Positions 1,490-63,585 of a stretch of 64,000 nt of DNA are shown piece by piece. Position 1 is the first letter of the stretch. Each line of letters begins with the position of its first letter. The notes beneath the pieces were generated by a model. That model was not told the DNA's origin. It was given only the letters and a program-made list of their open reading frames with translations, and searched no databases. Where the stretch lies: the NCBI GenBank assembly GCA_009741485.1, contig CM019236.1:36842568-36906567 (forward strand), in the 5' to 3' direction. The stretch comes from Malurus cyaneus samueli (taxonomy: Eukaryota; Chordata; Aves; Passeriformes; Maluridae). Position numbers and translations under genes: made by a program.

Positions 1490-2297
1490 AGGACCTGGGC
1501 AAGCTTATGAAGTGCGGCCATTGGGAATCTCCTGAGGTATGATAAGGCCAAGTGCAAGGTGCTGCACCTGGGTTGGGGCAACCCCCATTCCAACACAGCC
1601 TAGGGAAAAACGGGGCTCCCCAGCAGCCCTGGGGAGAAGGATCTGGGGAGGGGAGGCTGGACATGACCCGGCCATGGGCACTGCCAGCCCAGAGAGCCAA
1701 ACGTGTCCTGGGTGCATCCAAAGCACGGGGCAGCAGGGGAGGGAGGGATTGTGCCCTCTGCTCTGTCTGCTCTGCTGAGACCCCACCTGGAACACTGCAC
1801 CAGCTCTGGGGCCCAGCACAGGAGGGACAGGGACCTGTTGGAGACAGTCCAGAGGAGGCCACCAAATGGATCAGAGGGATGGAGCAACTCTTCTATGAGG
1901 AAAGAACTGGGATTGTTCAGCCTGGAGAAAACAAGGCTTTGGGTTGACCTTATTGGGATCTTCTAGTAGCTGAAGGGAGCCTGTAAGAAAGATGGAGAGA
2001 AACTTTTTACAAGACTATGTAGTGACAGGACAAGGGCAAATGTCTTCAAACTAAAAGAAAGCAGGTTTAGATTAGATGTTAGGTAGAAATTTTTAACTGT
2101 GAGGGTGGTGAGACAATGGCACAGGTTGCCAAGAAAAGCTGCAGGTGCCCCATCCTTGCAGGAGCTCAAGGCCAGGCTGGATGAATCTCTGAGCAATCTG
2201 GTCTAATAGAAGGTATCCCTGCCCAAGGTAGAGAGGTTAAAACTCTGTAATCTTTAAGGTGCCTTCCAACCAAAACCATTCTATGATTCTATGATAC
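1490..2297 (+). mobile_element. CR1 LINE, 5'-truncated copy with intact 3' end
   Basis: CR1 elements are non-LTR retrotransposons and the dominant interspersed repeats of birds; most copies keep only the 3' part. This one contains the end of the reverse-transcriptase reading frame, now broken, and the 3' UTR. Recognisable blocks in order are AAGTGCAAGGTGCTGCACCT near 1550, the 'GAGACCCCACCTGGA' block near 1778, 'TTGTTCAGCCTGGAGAA' near 1913, 'GTGAGGGTGGTGAGAC' near 2099 and the terminal 'CTTCCAACC...CATTCTATGATTCTATGA' near 2262-2296. The last is the CR1 3' octamer tail, so the element reads left to right and ends at about 2296. It is a shortened copy: the part between about 1600 and 1700 is more condensed than the avian consensus I know. 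The 5' limit near 1490 is approximate. Overlapping open frames on both strands at 1464-1966 fall inside this element and are not separate genes. Confidence 0.93.
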
Positions 2298-5200
2298 ACT
2301 GATCTCTTCACTTGTTCTGACCTTTCTCTACTATTTTGTTGACATCATAAACCCTAAATTTCTGAAGATTTACTTGTTAACACATGCCAAAACTCATAGG
2401 CCTATGAATATATTATTTCAAATTTTGTAAAAACAGGATGGCATTGATTAATAATTAGATTAATAATTATAGCCAAGTTCCATCAACATGAAGAGCTTGA
2501 GACCAAAGCCATAGCGTGGCTCAAAAGCAAGCCCTTGAGTCAGCCAAAGCTATACTTTAAGAACAATAGAAAGAACTTCTAACTACATAAAATCATAAAG
2601 AAAAAAACCAGAAATAAGTCTTGTCTTGCTGTCATGGTCAGGCAGTGAAAGCAAAATGTGTTTCTATAACACACACACAGAGTAACCATGCTTTGCTCCA
2701 CTTCCTGTCTACGATTCATGACAAACTAAAGATTTCAGGCAGGGAGAGTAAAGTGGAAAGAAACTGAATGGTGCCTGACTGTTGTGCCACCTAAAGGAGA
2801 GAGAACATCTCGAAACCTGTTTGGTGAATTAGAAGTTAGACATTATGGGAAAAAGTGGACCCTTCACTTTCTGGTTTTCAGTTCAAATGAACCAATTATT
2901 TTGCTGACCTCAGGGTCCAAATTTCAAAGAAAGCTGAAGACAGGCTTAGGCCTGCTGCTATGGCAAATTCCAAAATACCCAATTACTGACCTCAGGAGGA
3001 GTCAGCATTCCTGAGATTAGAGTCACTGGGAGTTTACTTCACAAACTCACTTCTAATAATATACTATAGTGCAGACACCATTAACCTGCCTTTTTCAGTT
3101 AGCAAATAAGATATGTCTCAAGGCAAAATAGATATTAACAGCCAGTGGTAGGAGTTACATCTCTAATTGGAAACAGCAACATCTGCAGGGGAGTGTAATA
3201 AAAGCATATAACAAGTGAATGTGTCAGTGGGTTACAGGGACTCTGGGTTATTGTTCCATAAGACAGCTTTAGCAGAAACAATGAATATTTCAGAACTTCA
3301 CAGGTCCACACTAATTCTGGTCACCAAAGAGCATCCCAAGGATTAACTGTTCTTACTAGCCAATTGGACCAGCATTATACTGGCAGACTTCCCAGATTTC
3401 CTTATTATTTGCCCTGCATTTATTTCACTGTTTACACCATTTTGTAGCTAGCTAATTCTCTTCCTTTTCTGCCAACTGGTCTAAGGATGCTGTTCAATAA
3501 CAAAGCCCATTCACATCAGCTGCTTGAGGTAGGGCTATTGTGTCCTAGCTGTCAGTTATTCTGAAACATCTTTAGGTCTAAGTTATTTTAATATGAGTGA
3601 CCTGCTGATTCTATGTACAAAACTCTTCCACTGCTTTTATAATTAAACACACAAAGCAAAAGCCTGAAAACTTAGCACCTGCTGAGCACCCACAAACTCC
3701 GAGGGAAGCCTATCTGTATTGCAGTTACAGAAGCTGAGGTATTTAAACATACAGGAAGTATTCTTATTATTCTTCATGTCTGAGGTAATATCTTTCCTTC
3801 TGGATTAAACCGCACTTCACATGATTGGAAGAGATTTCTAGATCTATTTGAAAGAAAAAATCTTGTAGAGATTTTTCCTATTTCTCATTTTACATTTTAC
3901 TCAGTCCTTTCTGAGTCTTTTCTGTGCACTTACTTCAGATGACTGAAGACAGTGCGCAGTTTACAGCACTTCTGTATATCATTCCACTGTTTGTCTGGCT
4001 TTTGGAGCTGAATTTTATTTTGTGGGTGGCAGTGTTAGGTCTTATACTATGACTTACCATGTGCTGGCTGTTCTATGGAATAGGATTTCTTAAGGTGGAT
4101 AGCAAATATGCAGTTTTGCCACTTCTTGAAAATATGTATTTGGCTTTGTTTCCAGAAACAGCAAGCAAGCATATTCTTTTTGATTTTTTGCTTGTTACTA
4201 TCCGAAACCAGGTTATATTTCAAGCACCTTTTATTGCATTTCCGTGCAAGCTATGTGAAGGGAACAGCCCACATCCATTCAGCAAAACCAAACAAATCTA
4301 TTCTCCTGTTCAGATGAGGAAAAAAGCGCAGTTGCAGATGGCAACGATGTTCACATTCTCAAATTTTATAGAAAATGCCTCCCTCTTCAAACTTCTTAAA
4401 CAGACAGTTTGCCTTGTGTATATGTTGCAGCTGATACATCTAGGGGCCTTTTCATTTCTCATTGCCTCCTTCTTATTTCTTAACTCTTAAACAAGTTTTG
4501 TTTCAATAGGACTACCACAGCCATCAGAGCAGCATGGTAGAGTCATTCTTGGTTTAGAAGGTGGGGCAGTGAAGCAGCTTCACCATAAAGAGTCTACCAG
4601 ACGACAAGACTTGGGCATGCAAGACTACCAGGCAGCACATCACTGCCTTCTGCTTCTTCACATATCTGCTCTGAGTTTTGCATAGATAATAATGTCCTTT
4701 TACTAGATACATCACTTAAACTTATAAACTGTAAAAAGAAAGGCAAAACCCCAGATGGTTTGAGAAGCAGATGACATGCTTGTTAAGTCTCCAAATGTTC
4801 CAGCTGCACTTTCAAGAGACTTCAGCCAAGGTAGGTGGAGCTGCTTGTGATATGGGGCTGTTCCCACTGCACCTTTCAAATGCTGGAATCTGTGGCTCTG
4901 GTCAGACTTCTTTGTGCTTTCTAGAAAGCATGGTAGCAATTGCTGGAAAAGGGAGTATTGTGCACAGTATCCTGAACACCAGCTCTTCTAAATGTGAGCT
5001 TTCTCAAAATTCTGTAATATGGGTACTTGTCCTTGTTGCTCTTCTCTGGTTATAGCCAGATCCCGATCCCCAGGTGAGGTCAGAAGAGTTGGAAACAGGT
5101 CAGGTCTACTGCTCTGCTACTAATGAACTGGGGCAGAAATCAGCCACTCCTTTAATTTGTGAACATTTAAAAAATCATCAACAATTTTTAAAAAATCTAC

Positions 5201-7895: not shown

Positions 7896-10097
7896 AGGCT
7901 GCTAATTTACTTCTCCTTGAGACACCCAGGAATGCTGAGTTCTCTGACTTTACAAATCCTGGGGAGACTTTGGATTGATTTGAGTTGCAGGGAGTGATGA
8001 TTCATTAAAACCACAATTCCATTATAGAGTCCTGCTATTGCTGCTTGCGACACCTCACATAGTATGTGCTGCAGTATTTCAGGTTTAATACCGTCCAAGA
8101 TATTATTTTTGCTTTTTAAAAAGCCATGGAGTTTTACAGACAATTAATGTGTTCCTGATGGATCATTGAAGGAACTAATGACCATGCTCATCTCACCAGG
8201 CAATTGGAGGCCAGGTGAAGGTGGGGCTGGCAGGCAGGGAGAGCAGGAGGAGAAGGAAGGGTTGAAACTGGATTTTCAAAGGAAGGTCTCAGATGTACTA
8301 TCAGGTAACAGATGGATTAACCAGTTATTGTGCATCAGATGAACTGTGGTAATCAATCCTGCATTCATGTTAGCCCAGCACAAGCTAAATCTAAGCACAT
8401 CAGCTAGCAGTCCTGCTAAGATCACTGACATGACCTTGAATTTGCCGTGTTAGAACTCAAACACTGTCCCTTATGATCAGTCTCTCTGTCGGATAGGATA
8501 TGGACAGTCATGTTCAGCCTCAGAAGAAGTTTGAGGGCATGGAACAAGTATCAAAAATGGGATAGAGAGGAGCTAAGGGACATGACAAGTTTAAGTTGTA
8601 AACTAGAGCTGCAGTTACAGAGACGAGAGGCCATCTCTAAAGAGAGAGAAGCCAGACATAAGGGTAAATCCATAGGGAATGTCAGGTCAAGTAGCTGAAC
8701 TTGCTTCATGTTCTTGCCCTAGGCGGCCCAGAACAGCCAGATTTGGTGTTCAACAACCGTGGCTGGGCTGGTGCTGCAGTTGCTGGAATGGACGTTGGCT
8801 GACAGGACAGATGTATTTCCAATATTTAAGATGTAGGCATCACTGCTTCTGTTATGTCTCATTTGTTTCAGTTTGCCTGCACAGCTTGGAATGGGGAGAC
8901 TGGTGGTGGCTTGACAACATGTCGAGTTGTCTGTCACTATGGTGTGTTGGAAAGAGTAATCTCAACAGTTGTTGAGAAGTTTCCAAAAGGGTAACAAAGC
9001 TGCTCTTTATCCCTCTGATCAAATACAGCAATAACTAATGTTTTTTTCTTGTTATGTGATCACCAAAAACCAGGGGTAAACGTCAGTCTGAGTAACTTGA
9101 TTTTTTTTACATTATGTTAGGAGAAGTGTAGAAGAGGAGACAAGTAAAGGATCTCTAAGAAAATTCACTGGCTGATTCCTATTCTGACCACCTGCACAGC
9201 ACACACAGTGCAAAACCAAGATGCCACCTCAGCTGGCAGGAAACCTGGCTAGAACTATGTCTTTCATGCTTTGCATTGCACTGGGAAGTGAGGATGTAAA
9301 AAAAATTACCTGTCTTTTCATGAAGGAAGGTAGAAATAAGGAGGTCAAAGTGACAAGGAATTTTTTTAACCAGCTGAGCAGAAGATCCTCAGGTGGTGTA
9401 AATCTGCATTGCTCTGGGGCTGTATGAACATCAGACTAAAATACTTGATGCCCTGATAGAGAACAAGTAGGAAATGAAATGAAAAGTCTGCTGTAAAATC
9501 TCAAATGTTAACAACACACAGAAAGAAACACAAAACCCCACAATGAAATAAATTGATAATCAGATGATGCTTTATTCAAACCATATTGACAATTTGTATG
9601 AAATTGCAGGTCAGATTCAAGACTGTAGGCTGAGAAACTGGAATGTAATGTCATTTTGAAGTCTCTGCTTATGCTTCAGTGGGAAACCAAAAGCAGCCCT
9701 AAGGGGCTAAAAATGTGTATTTTTCAAGCTCAAGCTCTGCTTTGTTGTTTAGTTGTTTTTTTGACATGGTTTGGGGCTTTTTTAATGAAGTAAGGCAAAA
9801 ATAAGTTTCTAATAAAATAGGACATACACTTACTTTATTTCCTTTACCTCCCCGAATCCAAAACAAAGATAGATCGAAACTCTAAGTAACATTTGTGTAT
9901 TAAAAGAAGTTATTCCTGACAATTTTAATGACAAGTTTCAGCTTGATGTGATTTAAAATGGGCAAGTTACAAAGCCCTAAAAAACCAGGGTTTTATAATG
10001 GAAATGCTGACAGACCCTTAACTACAGCAACGTTGCTGGGCGCCACTCTAATAAAAGGTGGCAAGGATCCAGAAGTATTCACAGCTGCATGTCTAAA
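7896..10097. other. Anonymous non-coding DNA
   Basis: No supported gene or transposon. A 78-codon frame on the minus strand (7907-8143) and several on the plus strand have no recognisable features. The last ~100 bases before 10098 are unrelated to CR1, although a CR1 copy begins abruptly at 10098. Confidence 0.5.
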
Positions 10098-10414
10098 CAA
10101 TAGATCAGGTTGCTCAGGGTCGCATCCACCCTGGCCTTGAAATTTCCAGAGATGGGGCATCCACAGCCTCCTGGCAACATGCTCCAGTGCTTCACCACTC
10201 GCTGAGTAAAGAATTTCTTCCCAATACCTCATTAAACCTGTCCTCTTTCGTGTACTATCACTATCACTTGTCCTGTCACTATCTTTTGTAGAAAGTCCCT
10301 CTACTTCCTTTTATAAGTCCCCTTAAGTTACTAGAAGGCTGCTATGAAAGGTCTCTCCAGAGTCCTCTTTTCTCCAGGTGAACAGCCCAACTCTCTCAGT
10401 CTATCTTCATAGAA
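10098..10414 (-). mobile_element. CR1 LINE fragment, 3' end missing (left copy)
   Basis: Read on the minus strand this is the same CR1 segment as 15558-15879: 'TTCAGCCTGGAGAAAAGAGG', the 'GGGGACTTATAAAAGGAAG' block, 'GAAGAAATTCTTTACTCAGC' and 'GGATGCCCCATCTCTGGAAA'. The copy stops at 10098 in the middle of the element (at the 'CCTGATCTATTG' point), so the true CR1 3' tail is missing. It differs from the right copy by several small indels, for example one missing base near 10391 and a changed stretch near 10227-10240. The abrupt end inside the transposon marks the edge of the duplication described at 10098-15879. Confidence 0.88.
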
Positions 10415-11376
10415 GCTTCTTCTTTTCATTCTGTAATCATTCACCATAGTCCATAATAGTTTGTGAAATTAAATAATTATTGATTATTTGACTGAAACAA
10501 TAATGCCTGGAGCAAGGGAGCTATCAGGAGCTCTAAATAAAAAGCCCTATTCTTGCATGTTTTTTCATATGTTTCATTTCTTTGCTAGTGGGTTTCTGGC
10601 AGCAACCTGGTGATGTTAAAAATGTTGGAAACCTTTGCCCTTTAACAAGTGGATTGGTAGTGTGGCAAAATGACTGGACCCAGTGTTGCTTCAATTCATC
10701 TGCAGAGGGGAAGAATCTGCAGGCTTCAGGGTCAGTTGGTCAGAGTTCTGGGATACCCTATGCACACCCTGTGCACAGCCTGATCCACTGAAATTTTCAC
10801 TGATTTCTAAATTGTCTTCTCTCACTACAAAGCTTGACACAGCCATAGGTGTGGTAGATCCATAATTTAGTCCCTTAAGATTAGTGATTACAGATTGGCA
10901 ATTGGATAAATTTAGATAAACTGTGAGGCCAAAAAGAGCATCTTTTATCCTTGATAGTGCAGAAATGAAGTTCACACAACCCTGCCAGTAGCAAACACTT
11001 AACCCTTTGTGTACAAATACTGGGCAGGTAGGTAACACATATTTCTGACTTGTCAGGCTGTTTTTCTTTCTAACAGTAGTAATTTGGAAAATGGAAAAAT
11101 GTATTAATCGAAGTCAGCTCTTCCACACTATGTGCCAAAAGCCTCTTTAAACATATAGAGATGAAACTGTTTTTCTTTAATCTCCTAGTTTTCTGTTTTC
11201 TTTACTCTTTCCTTCTTTTTTTTCTTCTGAAAATTTCGGAATTATCACCTGTTGTCATCTCCATGTATGTTCGTACTTGTTTGAAAGTGAGTCAAAATTA
11301 TCTGTAATTTAATTGAAGGCTGTAAGTTATGTTGGTGAGTGCTAAGCAGCTGCATGTTGTGCCTGTGGCCTTGAAT
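10098..11376 (+). repeat. Duplicated segment A, left copy
   Basis: This stretch is repeated in reverse complement at 14589-15879. From about 10441 to 11280 the two copies appear identical by eye, including a 115-codon frame at 10691-11038 that reappears on the other strand at 14934-15281. Both ends of the left copy show small indels against the right copy. Segment A holds a CR1 fragment at its outer end and otherwise anonymous AT-rich DNA. The shared open frame is no evidence of coding, since both copies are one recent duplicate or the same locus assembled twice. Confidence 0.9.
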
Positions 11377-12537
11377 CTGGAAAAAAAAAGGGCAGCATTT
11401 CAGAGAATGCAAAGCCCTTCTGTGAAATAAAGTTGACAATGAAGGAGAAGTTCTCCTCATCTTCACAAAACTCTCTATATGTGGGAGGTTGTCCAGCTTG
11501 GTTTCTCTCTGTGAACTAGTTACTGAAAAGTTACATTTTCAGCCACTGAGAAGCTAATGTACACTGCTTATAGACAGTCAGAAAGCCAATGTATTAAATG
11601 AACACACAATTATATTATAGACCTCCAAATTTAAGCATTTGAGAACTAGAATACAATTTTAATGCAAGTATCTTATCTGTCTTGTCTTGTAATACCATCA
11701 AAGCAGTGTCATAATGACCATTTAATTCATCTCAAAAACAAATTCTCTGATTGCATCTTTATTGCTACAATTGATAAAATATAAGTACACATCCTGTGTT
11801 TTACCATAAATACTGAAATGGTTACTGGGCAACTGAATATGTCTGCTCATATTGCTGTGGCAAATACACAGCTTAAAAAACTTATATGTTGACATCTCAG
11901 TTCCTCATTAATTTAGGCTGCACAATACAAAATACTACTAGATTTTTGTTTTGAGTTATGTTTATGCTCTTAGTAGTAAATTATAAGGTCATTCTTCCAA
12001 AAGGGAGTGGGAGGCTTGTCCCTCTATGAAGGAATGAAAGAATTCTCACCCATACTTCAGTCTTTCAATGAACTGCCATAAGGGTACAGCTGCCTAAAAG
12101 GAGACCCCATTCCCACCATGGGTGCTGCTCCCATGGCCCTTTCAAGTCTCAGCAGAACCAGAAGAAAGCTTTCCACAACAGTACTGAACTTCAATATCAA
12201 TATTTGAAAATTTCTATTACAAACTACTCTAGTACACCTTCCATGGCTGCTCCAAAACCACATCAGTGGAGGTCATTGCCCAAATACATGCCCAGAAAGA
12301 TGGAGCAGCTGGGAAATGAATGGCAGCCACTAGAAATGAACTGCCAAGAGCACGGAAAACAGCAACAACAAGCTGGGATTTCAGTGTCAGTAACAATCAA
12401 CCCTATGTAAAAAGGGGTCATGTTCCAAAGACTGGTGGTATCATGAAACGTTATCTCTGCAAATGTGCGCTTACCCAAAATGTCCTGGTTTGCAGGTGGC
12501 AGGCACCTAGCACTAGATTTAAATAAATAAAAAAATA
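11376..12537 (+). repeat. Duplicated segment B, left copy
   Basis: Repeated in the same orientation at 13407-14588. From about 11960 to 12510 the copies look identical, so the same open frames recur (12057-12263 and 14109-14315, for example). From 11376 to about 11960 they differ by many one- to few-base insertions and deletions. B is bounded by A-rich runs: 'TCTGGAAAAAAAAAGGG' on the left and 'AAATAAATAAAAAAATA' on the right. No coding content is supported. Confidence 0.9.
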
Positions 12538-13045
12538 CATTTATACCTTCCATGTACTAGCACAGTTATTTTATTACTTGGCTGATTACTGAAACAATTG
12601 GTTTTGCTTATTTTGTTTTTACAATTATTTCCTAATTGCAAACTATTATGGATGTATTTTAAGAACAATTTGCTTTCTCACTGAATGCTTAAGGCAACTA
12701 AAATACTTTGCTTAGAGAAAGTTGGAAGTTGCTTTATTTTTTTTGCCTTGGGAATTACAGATGTTTCTGTGTTCATCATGCTTCATTTACAGACATTGGC
12801 CTTTAACATATGAATTATTTTAGCCCAAGGACCCAAAAAAAAAAAAAAAACATGCTTCTTGCCAATATCAGTGCATCCTTGGTTTTGGGGAACAGCCTTG
12901 TTTTACAGGAGAAAATAAAAATTAAGAATGCACTGGTACCAGTTAGGAACATATTAGTACAACACTTTATAAACTGGAATGTGTCAGAATTAAGTGAGTT
13001 ATGATCTGGCAAGGACCTGCAAACTATAGTCAGATACTTAATAAA
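12538..13045. other. Sequence between segment B and the assembly gap
   Basis: About 500 bases of AT-rich unique DNA with an A run near 12835-12850. No gene or transposon is visible. It has no counterpart in the right copy within this window, so its partner, if any, would lie in the gap. Confidence 0.6.
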
Positions 13046-13406
13046 NNNNNNNNNNNNNNNNNNNNNNNNNNNNNNNNNNNNNNNNNNNNNNNNNNNNNNN
13101 NNNNNNNNNNNNNNNNNNNNNNNNNNNNNNNNNNNNNNNNNNNNNNNNNNNNNNNNNNNNNNNNNNNNNNNNNNNNNNNNNNNNNNNNNNNNNNNNNNNN
13201 NNNNNNNNNNNNNNNNNNNNNNNNNNNNNNNNNNNNNNNNNNNNNNNNNNNNNNNNNNNNNNNNNNNNNNNNNNNNNNNNNNNNNNNNNNNNNNNNNNNN
13301 NNNNNNNNNNNNNNNNNNNNNNNNNNNNNNNNNNNNNNNNNNNNNNNNNNNNNNNNNNNNNNNNNNNNNNNNNNNNNNNNNNNNNNNNNNNNNNNNNNNN
13401 NNNNNN
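13046..13406. other. Assembly gap, 361 N
   Basis: Undetermined bases. The two open frames reported across it on either strand (12815-13507 and 13001-13465) exist only because N is not read as stop. The gap sits between the two copies of the duplicated block, which raises the suspicion that the flanking contigs were joined around an unresolved or doubled locus. Its length is not a round placeholder number, so it may be an estimated size. Confidence 0.99.
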
Positions 13407-14588
13407 TCTGGGAAAAAAAAAAAAAAAAGGCAGCATTTCAAGAGAATGCAAAGCCCTTTCTGTGAAATAAAGTTGACAATGAAGGAGAAAGTTCTCCTCA
13501 TCTTCACAAAACTCTCTGCTATATGTGGGTTTGTCCAGCTTGGTTTCTCTCTGTGAACTAGTTACTGAAAAGTTCTACATTTTCAGCCACTGAGAAGCTA
13601 TGTACACTGCTTATAGACAGTCAGAAAGCCAATGTATTAAATGAACATCCACAATTAGTTATTAATAGCCTCCAAATAATGCATTTGAGAACTAGAAATA
13701 CAATATTTATCACCATGCAAGTATCTTTCTGTCTTGTCTGTAATACCATCAAAGCAGTGTCATAATGATCAATTAATTCATCTCAAAATACAAATTCTCT
13801 GATTGCATTCTTTATTGCTACAATTGATAAAATATAAGTACACCATCCTGTGTTTTACCATAAATTGAAATGGTTACTGGGTCCAACTGAATATGTCTGC
13901 TCATATTGCTGTGGCAAATACACAGCTAAAAAACTTATATGTTGACTCTCAGTTCCTCATTAATTTAGGCTGCACAATACAAAATACTACTAGATTTTTG
14001 TTTTGAGTTATGTTTATGCTCTTAGTAGTAAATTATAAGGTCATTCTTCCAAAAGGGAGTGGGAGGCTTGTCCCTCTATGAAGGAATGAAAGAATTCTCA
14101 CCCATACTTCAGTCTTTCAATGAACTGCCATAAGGGTACAGCTGCCTAAAAGGAGACCCCATTCCCACCATGGGTGCTGCTCCCATGGCCCTTTCAAGTC
14201 TCAGCAGAACCAGAAGAAAGCTTTCCACAACAGTACTGAACTTCAATATCAATATTTGAAAATTTCTATTACAAACTACTCTAGTACACCTTCCATGGCT
14301 GCTCCAAAACCACATCAGTGGAGGTCATTGCCCAAATACATGCCCAGAAAGATGGAGCAGCTGGGAAATGAATGGCAGCCACTAGAAATGAACTGCCAAG
14401 AGCACGGAAAACAGCAACAACAAGCTGGGATTTCAGTGTCAGTAACAATCAACCCTATGTAAAAAGGGGTCATGTTCCAAAGACTGGTGGTATCATGAAA
14501 CGTTATCTCTGCAAATGTGCGCTTACCCAAAATGTCCTGGTTTGCAGGTGGCAGGCACCTAGCACTAATTTAAATAAATAAAAAAATA
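13407..14588 (+). repeat. Duplicated segment B, right copy
   Basis: Direct repeat of 11376-12537, beginning at the very edge of the gap with 'TCTGG' and an A run longer than in the left copy. The first ~530 bases differ from the left copy by scattered small indels; after about 13960 the copies match almost perfectly until the A-rich right end. It is joined without any spacer to the inverted copy of A at 14589. Confidence 0.9.
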
Positions 14589-15879
14589 ATTCAAGGCCAC
14601 AGGCACAACATGCAGCTGCTTAGCACTCAGCCCAACATAAACCTTACAGCCTTCAATTAAATTACAGACTAATGTTTGACTCACTTTCAAACAAGTACGA
14701 ACATACATGGAGATGACAACAGGTGATAATTCCGAAATTTTCAGAAGAAAGAAAAAGAAGGAAAGAGTAAAGAAAACAGAAAACTAGGAGATTAAAGAAA
14801 AACAGTTTCATCTCTATATGTTTAAAGAGGCTTTTGGCACATAGTGTGGAAGAGCTGACTTCGATTAATACATTTTTCCATTTTCCAAATTACTACTGTT
14901 AGAAAGAAAAACAGCCTGACAAGTCAGAAATATGTGTTACCTACCTGCCCAGTATTTGTACACAAAGGGTTAAGTGTTTGCTACTGGCAGGGTTGTGTGA
15001 ACTTCATTTCTGCACTATCAAGGATAAAAGATGCTCTTTTTGGCCTCACAGTTTATCTAAATTTATCCAATTGCCAATCTGTAATCACTAATCTTAAGGG
15101 ACTAAATTATGGATCTACCACACCTATGGCTGTGTCAAGCTTTGTAGTGAGAGAAGACAATTTAGAAATCAGTGAAAATTTCAGTGGATCAGGCTGTGCA
15201 CAGGGTGTGCATAGGGTATCCCAGAACTCTGACCAACTGACCCTGAAGCCTGCAGATTCTTCCCCTCTGCAGATGAATTGAAGCAACACTGGGTCCAGTC
15301 ATTTTGCCACACTACCAATCCACTTGTTAAAGGGCAAAGGTTTCCAACATTTTTAACATCACCAGGTTGCTGCCAGAAACCCACTAGCAAAGAAATGAAA
15401 CATATGAAAAAACATGCAAGAATAGGGCTTTTTATTTAGAGCTCCTGATAGCTCCCTTGCTCCAGGCATTATTGTTTCAGTCAAATAATCAATAATTATT
15501 TAATTTCACAAACTATTATGGACTATGGTGAATGATTACAGAATGAAAAGAAGAAGCTTCTATGAAGATAGACTGAGAGAGCTTGGGCTGTTCAGCCTGG
15601 AGAAAAGAGGACTCTGGAGAGACCTTTCATAGCAGCCTTCTAGTAACTTAAGGGGACTTATAAAAGGAAGTAGAGGGACTTTCTACAAAAGATAGTGACA
15701 GGACAAGTGATAGTGATAGTACACGAAGAGGACAGGTTATGATGGTATTTTGGGAAGAAATTCTTTACTCAGCGAGTGGTGAAGCACTGGAGCATGTTGT
15801 CCAGAGAGGCTGTGGATGCCCCATCTCTGGAAATCTTCAAGGCCAGGGTTGATGCGACCCTGAGCAACCTGATCTATTG
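14589..15879 (-). repeat. Duplicated segment A, right copy (inverted)
   Basis: Reverse complement of 10098-11376. Its inner end corresponds to left-copy position 11376, which is also where right-copy B starts. The outer end runs through a CR1 and continues beyond the point where the left copy is cut off, so this copy retains more of the transposon. Small indels against the left copy cluster near 14589-14680 and inside the CR1. Confidence 0.9.
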
Positions 15880-15963: not shown

Positions 15964-18710
15964 TTCAAATAGGCACTTGCTCTCTGCCCACTGCTCTCTC
16001 CCAACAGTTGTTCACCATTTTGCTATTTTGAGTTCTTTCCGTTGATTTTCTATAGCTAGCCAGTCTGCATTTCTAGAAGATTCCATTCTGCATATTCAGG
16101 GCCTTGAATCTTTCATGCATGTGATCCGATGTTTCCCTCTGTAAATAAAGTTCATATGATTTTTTGTGTCTTTGTTTTCTTAATGGAAATTAAGATTCAT
16201 ACAAAGCATTTGAATTTTCAGGAAATACATGTCCTGGAGTTATTAATCTCCTCTGAAACAGAAAATTTACTGCATCTATGTAGGACTGAGTTACTTTAAT
16301 CACTGGCCTTTGTGTAAAAGGCAGGGAGACACATTGATTGACTGAAATATTACTTGGCAATCATTCTGTCTTCAGTCATGGATTAAATTGTTTCATGTGT
16401 ATCATTTTCAATCTATCATTAATATTTCTCTCTTTCATCTTCCTTTGTTTTTCCTGTTTTGATTTCAATTCTCAGTCGCAGGAGACTTTGAAGGAAGAGC
16501 CAAAATGACTATCATCTAGAATTATCAGCTCTGTGAGCAAAAGTACTCTCCCAGCACTTCTTGGTGATTTTTATTTCCTTTTCTGGCACTCTCTTCTCTG
16601 CACACACATGCACAATGTGGTGCGTGTCCAAGTCCTCTGCAAGAATGAACTCCATGTTGGGGGGTATAAAAGCAGTACTGTCTTCTGCTCTAAATGATCC
16701 TGGTTTCATGTTTAACTTTTGCCAAGCTGATGATACAACAAGCAACTATGCAAAGGAAGAGAGTGCAAAAGACTTCAAGACTGATCTTGAAGATGAGGAA
16801 AGATCCTTTCGTCCTATATTTAATTTACTCTGAACTCTTTGTTTTAAATAATGTTACAAAATTTCTTGATGTTCAAATGATGGCATCTGGTCTGTGCTTG
16901 TCTGAGCTTTCACTGAATTTGCTTCAGTTCAGGCCAAGAAGATAGGTCCCAGAGCTGTTACCACACTTGCTGATACTTGGTGCTGAATTTGCTGAATCAT
17001 TAAGTAGAAAACCAGCAAGCAAGGAACTCAAGAATTTGTTTCTGCAGAGATATGCATGACTTGAGGTCACCAGGCCTTTTTCTATGCTGTACCCAGCCCT
17101 TTCTAAAATACTGGTTTCCAGAGGAAAAGCCAAATTGTGGACTGACATGCTGGAACATAGAGGTGCTGTTTTGCTTTGCAAGACAAGATGGAGATGGAAC
17201 TGAGCTGTGCTGGCAAGGGAGAGATTTAGTTATATTTAAACATGGAGAAATGGAGGGCGAACCAGCTAAATTACAGAAGCAGACCCTTCACCTGCCTCTT
17301 GTCAGCCTCCACAAACTATTTCCCTATGACTGCTTTGTCTGTCCATGCAGACCTCGCCACCACCACCACATTCTTGTGTCCCAGTGCGATGTACTGGGAA
17401 TGTGTCTGTACTCAAAAACTGTGGGACCTCAACAACTCCCAGTGCTCCTAGGCAGTTCTGCCACTCATGGCAGCCTCTGCCCTGATTTGAGTGAGGCCTT
17501 TTGGCCCACTGTGCATATAAACTCCATCCAGTGCTTCTTCTTTACCACTGCTTCAATGAAAGTGAGCTCAACTTAAGAAAATATACTGTATTGAATTGTA
17601 AAATTTTATTGTGCACCATGATGAAATAATTTTCAAGCATTGAGTCATGTGGCGTTTTGTTTTCCTGTTTAACGCTGTTGGTAACCAAAGACAGTTTTTT
17701 ATCCAGACCACATGGTGCAATAGTCGTAAGAAAAGAAAACTCTCTAAATCTTTGCAATCTAAAATTGCACTTGCAAAGTATTATCATATATCTTATTTAA
17801 AATGGAGTAAAACATTGGAGTTTTTTTTTAAGTCAACTTAAAAATCTTCCATTCGCATTCACTTCTGATACAATAGAGTCCAAGGAGCCGAGAAAGAGCA
17901 GATGTTGTCCAAATGGGACTAATTTACTGGGACTGTTATTTTAAAATGTAGTGAATGCAAAAGCAACATTTAAAATTGGTCATGCCTCAGGCAATATCTT
18001 TTGCTGAAGCTATATGAACAATTTTAAAGGAATAGCAATCTACAATATGTAGGGTTAAATTTCCCCACCCTCTTGGAACTGGAGTTCCTCCTGAAGCCAG
18101 ACGGGTTATGCTTTTGTAATTGTACAATGAGGCATTTGTGCACTTTCAGGTGCTCTCAACTTCATCTCTGAGCATCAGAGCTATAGCATTCTGAGCTAGC
18201 CAGACATGGTCTATTTCATGGTCTGTTTCTTCACCTTATTTCTTCAGTCTGTGTGAAGAATCATAGTCATGGTTGGTTGGTGGAGATGTTGATTTTTTCA
18301 GCATTGGAACTTGTCTTTGCCACTTTTTGTCTAAACTTTCTGTGGAGGAAAAAATTTTTCCTGAGCAGTTTGTGCTACCAGGTCTGTCAAAAAGTTCAAA
18401 ATGCATGGAGCGGTTGTGCCTGCTGTGTACTTTCATGCCACATAAACATATTTGCTTCAGCTAATATATTGAACATATGAGACCATAATTATAAATATTA
18501 GTCCTCTACCTTTTCCTGCAGAGTTTATCAACACCTAAAAAGCATTTCAAGAACTAACAGGTACAGCAAAGCAGGGAACAGGGAAAACCAAGGCAGCTGG
18601 TCAGGGAAACTGAAGGTGGTGTTAAGAGCAGTTGCATTCTGCATCCTCAGCATTCATCACACCTGTGCATGGCTGTCTTAGTCACATCACATGCACATGG
18701 CTTCCTTTAC
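15964..18710. other. Anonymous non-coding DNA
   Basis: No supported gene or transposon. It contains the longest open frame outside low-complexity sequence (17052-17576, 174 codons, plus strand). That length is compatible with chance in 64 kb of this composition, and the predicted product has no domain, repeat or family resemblance that I can name. Confidence 0.5.
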
Positions 18711-62791: not shown

Positions 62792-63585
62792 TCTCTCCTC
62801 TCCTCTCCTCTCCTCTCCTCTCGTCTACTCTCTCCTCTCCCTCCTCTCCTTCCTCTCTCTCTCTCTCCTCGTCCGCTTCCTCTCCTCTCCCTCCTCCTCT
62901 CCTCCCTCTCTCCTCTCCCTCCTCTCCTCTCCTCCCTCTCCCTCTCCGAACCTCTCCGACCTCCCGACCTCTCCTCCTCTCTCTCTCCGAACTCTTCCTC
63001 TCCTCTCCTCTCCTCTCCTCTCCTCTCCTCTCCCTCTCTCTCTCCTCTCCGACCTTCTCCTCTCCCGCTCTCCTCTCCTCTCCTCTCCTCTCTCTCCTTC
63101 CTCTCCTCTCCTCTCCTCCTCTCCTCCTCTCTCTCCTCTCCTCTCCTCTCCTCTCCTCTCCTCTCCTCTCCTCTCCTCTCCTCTCCTCTCCAACTCTCCG
63201 AACCTCTCCGAACCTCTCCGAACCTCTCCGAACCTCTCCTTCTCCTCTCGCTCTCCTCTCCTCTCCTCTCCTCTCCCCTCCTCTCCTCTCCTCTCCGTAA
63301 CCCTCTCCTCTCCTACTCCTCTTCCTCTCCTCTCTCTCCTCTCTCTCTCCCTCCCTCTCCCCGAACTCTCGACCTCTCCGAACCTCTCCGAACTCTCCTC
63401 TCCGAACTTTCCGAACCTCCCGAACCTCCAACCTCTCCGAACCTCTCCTCTCCTCCTCCCTCTCCTCTCTCTCTCCTCTCCTCTCCTCTCCTCCCTCTCC
63501 TCCTCTCCTCTCCTCTCCTCTCCTCTCCTCTCTCTCCTCCTCTCTCCTCTCCTCTCTCTCCTCCCTCCCTCCTCTCCTCTCTCCC
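62792..63585. repeat. Long TCTCC-based polypyrimidine tract
   Basis: About 794 bases made almost wholly of C and T on the plus strand, dominated by the pentamer TCTCC with many CT-count variants. Interruptions are mostly CCGAA/CCGAC. At 63191-63240 and 63361-63445 these form a ten-base subrepeat AACCTCTCCG. The complementary polypurine strand gives a 334-codon frame rich in Arg, Glu and Gly (62595-63599) and the plus strand a Ser/Leu/Pro frame (62739-63662). Both are artefacts of the repeat. Such tracts are hypervariable, hard to sequence, and can form triplex (H-DNA) structures. Confidence 0.97.

What the first reader, a model, noticed from the sequence alone, without database searches (positions are those of the whole stretch)
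10098..15879. Head-to-head duplication around an assembly gap with a flipped inner segment
Left arm A-B (10098-12537) and right arm B'-A' (13407-15879) hold the same sequence. A' is inverted relative to A, as in a palindrome, but B' keeps B's orientation. A simple inverted duplication would give B inverted too. Either the arms are two alleles of one locus that differ by an inversion of B and were both placed in the scaffold, or a real palindrome has undergone a second inversion of its inner part, or the right contig is chimeric.
Basis: partly seen in the sequence, partly recalled or inferred. Interest (0 to 1): 0.75.

Follow-up and report, generated by a model that had tools for sequence, protein, structure and literature searches.

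The report
False duplication at an assembly gap
A stretch of about 2.4 kb in what looks like a bird genome appears twice on either side of a sequencing gap, once with its inner half flipped; the copies differ almost only by small insertions and deletions near their ends and joins, so this is most likely one ordinary locus assembled twice, not a biological rearrangement.

Summary
A (10098-11376) recurs inverted at 14589-15879, and B (11377-12537) recurs in the same orientation at 13407-14588, with a 361-N gap between the arms. Best supported is an assembly false duplication of one locus, with the small piece B set in the wrong orientation beside the gap. (1) The arms differ by 42 indel events and 5 substitutions; none falls in 829 bp of A or 620 bp of B, all lie within about 520 bp of an arm end or junction. 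CR1 repeats of the same genome differ the opposite way, 1187 substitutions to 267 indels. (2) B' starts at the gap edge, flush to 1 bp with the A/B boundary. (3) The CR1 repeat in A runs to its 3' end only on the right; the left arm cuts it about 88 bp short. (4) About 24-88 kb past the window the same scaffold holds a cluster of further duplicates, 7 of 9 pairs ending within 15 bp of a gap edge, two with identical runs of 505-1691 bp beside indel-rich stretches. No reads could be mapped, so a real inversion allele is not excluded. Interest is low.

The parts
10098..11376 (+). A, left copy; about 10098-10415 is part of a CR1 retroposon (on the minus strand) whose last 88 bp or so are missing here
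   Evidence: 98.5 % to 15879-14589; CR1; no difference in 10392-11220
11377..12537 (+). B, left copy; starts at a poly-A run, ends in AT-rich low-complexity sequence
   Evidence: 31 of 32 differences lie in 11377-11895, none in 11896-12515, one at 12516; junctions
12538..13045 (+). C, sequence between B and the gap, no second copy in the window
13046..13406 (.). assembly gap, 361 N
13407..14588 (+). B', second copy of B, same orientation as B; its left end is the contig end at the gap
14589..15879 (-). A', second copy of A, inverted; its CR1 continues past 15879 to the CR1 3' end near 15967

Best explanation
This is a false duplication made by the assembler, not a structure of the chromosome. 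One single-copy locus, most likely in the order R-A-B-C when read from the right flank (R = sequence right of 15879), was assembled twice: once as the left arm A-B-C, and once as the right arm, where the 1.2-kb piece B was joined to A in the wrong orientation and ends at the gap. Shown here: the two copies, their junctions, the indel-dominated, clustered differences, the intact CR1 across A'-R and the cut CR1 at 10098, and a cluster of further duplicates nearby that mostly end at gaps. Inferred: that both arms come from one locus, that the differences are uncorrected read errors near contig ends and joins, and that B' rather than B is the misoriented copy. That contigs tend to stop at poly-A runs and AT-rich sequence (B ends) and in multi-copy repeats (A end) is recalled, not tested.
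For: Of 47 difference events 42 are indels and 5 substitutions; the two longest stretches without a difference (829 and 620 bp) were not reached, as longest and second-longest run, in any of 100,000 uniform placements. With one alignment scoring for both, the arms give 5 substitutions: 42 indels and 16 CR1 copies compared with the right arm give 1187: 267 (Fisher p = 8e-25; the 16 pairs share one query and so are not independent, which makes this p too small). Of six event windows in the CR1 part, the 16 other copies side with the right arm at two (15 of 16 each), with the left arm at two (12 of 16 each) and do not decide two: both arms carry departures of their own. B' begins at the gap edge, flush to 1 bp with the A/B boundary. 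The CR1 runs to query base 365 or beyond of 398 in 37 of the 38 other copies listed (40 of 4389 candidates were scored), one ends at 311; the left arm stops at 310. The non-CR1 part of A-B was found nowhere else in the assembly (41 rows, 3 of them the arms themselves, the other 38 all inside query bases 1-318; 40 of 3390 candidates scored). In 264 kb around the window there are 10 N runs of irregular size and 9 further duplicate pairs (300 bp or more, 85 % or more) in one cluster; 7 of the 9 have an end within 15 bp of a gap edge. One duplicated block is bounded by gaps at all four ends and holds a 1691-bp identical run; the next has runs of 559 and 505 bp. The VGP paper describes this class: homotype false duplications at contig boundaries or from sequencing errors (PMC8081667, passages; also PMC9516828, passages).
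Against: No reads or second assembly were available, so depth and spanning were not tested. Departures in both arms are also what two true copies would show. The contig-boundary case in the passages is of tandem duplicates with a gap between (PMC8081667); an inverted arm with a flipped inner piece is not in the passages that I saw, and 'inverted' does not occur in the main text of PMC9516828. Joining B' to A' without any N needs a further assembler or gap-filling step that I cannot show. A 5-base context model did not say which arm is the faulty one in the A-inner and B zones. The neighbouring cluster may itself be a real tandem duplication that was badly assembled: its pairs overlap, in plain BLAST scoring 3 of 9 have more mismatches than gap openings, and only 2 of the 6 that I realigned have an identical run above 108 bp. 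The CR1 control is older sequence (72-77 % alike for the fetched copies) than the arms, so its ratio is a rough yardstick.
Confidence: 0.8

Rival explanations
1. Two haplotypes of one locus, one with B inverted, both placed in the scaffold (heterotype false duplication that hides a real 1.2-kb inversion polymorphism).
For: B is flipped as one block with clean ends. Both arms depart from the CR1 family at different events, as two alleles could. Heterotype duplication was the commoner kind in 2 of 3 previous assemblies (zebra finch, platypus; not Anna's hummingbird) in the table of PMC9516828 (passages).
Against: 5 substitutions against 42 indels, all near ends and junctions, and no difference in 829 + 620 bp. 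The gap lies exactly at the breakpoint of the flipped block, which an allele would not require. No exact inverted repeat of 9 bp or more between 200-bp stretches at the B ends that could drive an inversion.
Confidence: 0.1
2. A real, very recent inverted duplication (palindrome) whose inner part B was inverted a second time.
For: The overall A-B-gap-B'-A' layout, with both copies in one scaffold.
Against: The same as for the alleles, plus the CR1 cut at 10098 with no shared base at the junction (cut CR1), plus the need for two events, one of which ends exactly at the gap.
Confidence: 0.05
3. A chimeric or fold-back long read (an artefact of library making) was used to extend one contig, so that the inverted arm is a read artefact rather than a scaffolding one.
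For: An inverted arm is what a fold-back molecule gives (recalled, no call), and the arm ends look like uncorrected reads.
Against: A fold-back gives B inverted together with A; here B is direct, so a second fault is needed all the same.
Confidence: 0.05

Closest known systems
Homotype false duplication at contig boundaries (VGP terminology, PMC8081667; PMC9516828)
   Same: A duplicate that starts at a contig end, a gap between the copies, and differences of sequencing-error type rather than haplotype type.
   Different: The contig-boundary case in the passages I saw is tandem; here the outer part is inverted and the inner part direct, which needs a misorientation as well. Read depth, k-mers and read length could not be tested.
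Heterotype false duplication (both alleles placed; same papers)
   Same: Two near-identical copies in one scaffold with a gap between.
   Different: No pattern of spread-out allelic substitutions: 0 differences in 829 + 620 bp of core, 5 substitutions in all.

Membership tests
Homotype false duplication | gap between the duplicated pair on one scaffold | tested here: met
   361 N at 13046-13406 between the arms
Homotype false duplication | copies differ by sequencing-type errors or consensus quality rather than haplotype variants | tested here: met
   42 indels, 5 substitutions, clustered; CR1 control 267 indels, 1187 substitutions. That they are errors is inferred; no reads seen.
Homotype false duplication | duplicate sits at a contig boundary | tested here: met
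   B' begins at the first base after the gap; B ends 508 bp before the gap
[quoted passage not shown]
   no reads available
Heterotype false duplication | haplotype-specific variants (single-copy k-mers with real read support) in both copies | tested here: inconclusive
   no differences in 829 + 620 bp of core and 5 substitutions elsewhere, but no reads to test k-mer depth
Real inverted duplication (palindrome) | both parts of the arm inverted | tested here: not met
   B' is direct
Real inverted duplication (palindrome) | reads span the junctions at normal depth | not testable with these tools
   no reads available

The most novel reading that the evidence does not exclude
The animal carries a real 1.2-kb inversion polymorphism of B (or a young palindrome with a reinverted centre), and the assembler stumbled on it and placed both forms.
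Probability: 0.15. Interest if true: 0.25.

Novelty: not a real feature. Interest (0 to 1): 0.06.

Why it matters
It matters mainly as a warning: in this assembly, near-identical duplicates that abut gaps and differ by indels should not be read as segmental duplications, palindromes or inversions without a look at the reads. The pattern (identical cores, indel-rich ends, gap flush with a breakpoint) can be recognised from the sequence alone and could serve as a filter before a call of a young duplication is believed.

Tried and rejected
Which arm holds the errors: the CR1 family votes both ways by event, and a 5-base context model could not separate the arms (mean log2 likelihood per base, left / right: CR1 zone -1.9654 / -1.9482; A inner -1.9062 / -1.923; B zone -1.8823 / -1.8832), so this stays open outside the CR1. 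A first polarity script compared windows with unequal ends and was replaced; its votes are not used. A three-sequence comparison with the CR1 copy at 1900-2298 alone was ambiguous (13 columns with the right arm, 7 with the left, 3 with neither). In one search the MAFFT alignment put shifted runs down as mismatches and took in flanks; event counts are taken instead.

Genes: no tRNA (ARAGORN) and no Rfam match at gathering score in the window; the open frames (45 of 110 aa or more, several running through the N run) were looked at by eye only and not searched against families. Inverted repeats at the ends of B as a cause of inversion: no exact one of 9 bp or more in 200-bp stretches. Papers: search listings only; passages seen in PMC9516828 and PMC8081667; no paper was read whole. 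None of the titles listed names this inverted-and-flipped pattern, but the searches were narrow and do not show that it is not in print.

Not answered: the searches of the own genome with C (12520-13045) and with the left flank (8600-10097) found the machine busy each time. The right flank (15975-17500) has a single match in the assembly.

On checking: the chance of the most novel reading was raised from 0.12 to 0.15, so that it equals the sum of the two rivals it covers; the CR1 part of A was corrected to about 10098-10415.

Full report
What is there. The window is 64 kb of a 1.067-Gb assembly of 1295 contigs (C178:36842568-36906567). The CR1 retroposons point to a bird or other sauropsid (the name CR1 and this inference are recalled; no call names the repeat or the species).

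How the copies differ. An alignment that allows cheap indels gives 47 events, 42 indels and 5 substitutions. They sit in 10098-10391, 11221-11376, 11377-11895 and at 12516. Between these lie 829 bp and 620 bp without any difference; uniform placement of 47 events never gave runs as long in 100,000 trials. In contrast, 16 CR1 copies (15 fetched of the 38 other copies listed, plus the one at 1900-2298) compared with the right arm differ by 1187 substitutions and 267 indels under the scoring that gives 5 and 42 for the arms. The 16 pairs share one query and are older than the arms, so the p-value of 8e-25 overstates the case, but the direction is plain: ordinary divergence in this genome is substitution-rich and the arms are not. 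Read errors left in poorly covered sequence near contig ends and joins would give what is seen; that is an inference.

Which copy is right. In the CR1 part the family sides with the right arm at 10379 and 10171-10175 (15 of 16 copies each) and with the left arm at 10223-10246 and 10127 (12 of 16 each); 10391 (6 left, 4 right, 6 ties) and 10142 (1, 1, 14) do not decide. So neither arm is the clean one, which two true copies would show as well. For the other zones no third copy was found: one search places the non-CR1 part of A and B only in the two arms, among 40 scored of 3390 candidates.

The junctions. The CR1 runs through A'|R to its 3' end: 37 of 38 other copies listed (40 of 4389 candidates scored) extend to base 365 or beyond of the 398-base query and one ends at 311; the left arm ends at 310. 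The A'-R join is therefore the natural one, and the join L|A at 10097/10098 cuts a repeat with no shared base. B' begins at the first base after the gap, flush to 1 bp with the boundary between A and B, and the other end of B' is joined to the inner end of A'. The right arm is thus the complete A-B segment with B turned round in place, and the gap falls exactly on one of the two breakpoints. A misplaced contig predicts this; a biological inversion does not require it. B starts at a poly-A run (9 A on the left, 16 on the right) and ends in AT-rich sequence, places where contigs tend to break (recalled).

The neighbourhood. In 264 kb around and including the window there are 10 N runs of 953, 1, 361, 216, 1905, 318, 121, 25, 95 and 121 bases. 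Apart from the arms, 9 duplicate pairs (300 bp or more, 85 % or more) were found, in one cluster at C178:36930129-36994417, about 24-88 kb beyond the right end of the window; 7 of 9 have an end within 15 bp of a gap edge. One search also lists three short repeats of 81-126 bp elsewhere, not counted here. Six of the nine were realigned: indels outnumber substitutions in 6 of 6 with that scoring, though in the BLAST mismatches exceed gap openings in 3 of 9. Two of the six have long identical runs: 36956957-36959371 against 36979582-36981982, bounded by gaps at all four ends (1691 bp), and the next pair (559 and 505 bp); in the other four the longest run is 72-108 bp. The pairs of this cluster overlap and are not independent, and a real tandem array badly assembled could also give them.

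What is known. [quoted passage not shown] for the contig-boundary kind, scaffolding gives tandem duplicates with a gap between (PMC8081667, passages). The criteria of PMC9516828 include gaps between duplicated pairs on one scaffold and low read depth (passages). The present case meets those that sequence alone can test. The flipped inner piece is an added orientation error. A hybrid assembler that alternates exact short-read blocks with raw long-read sequence would explain identical cores beside indel-rich joins (recalled, no call).

Verdict. Without reads, a real inversion allele (about 0.1) or a real palindrome (about 0.05) stay possible. Interest is low.

Noticed in passing
own assembly C178:36930129-36994417, about 24-88 kb beyond the right end of the window (loci L021-L027): A cluster of overlapping direct duplicates of 1.5-9 kb, 85-95 % alike, 7 of 9 pairs ending within 15 bp of a gap edge, two with identical runs of 505-1691 bp beside indel-rich sequence; either further false duplication or a real tandem array badly assembled.
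   Followed up: partly
window 62793-63581: A CT-rich (GA-rich on the other strand) low-complexity tract of about 790 bp with open frames on both strands that look like plain repeat translation by eye.
   Followed up: no
window 1900-2298: Another CR1 copy, 68 % identical to the one in A'.
   Followed up: partly
own assembly C178:36836563, about 6 kb left of the window: An N run of a single base, among nine others of irregular length within 264 kb.
   Followed up: no
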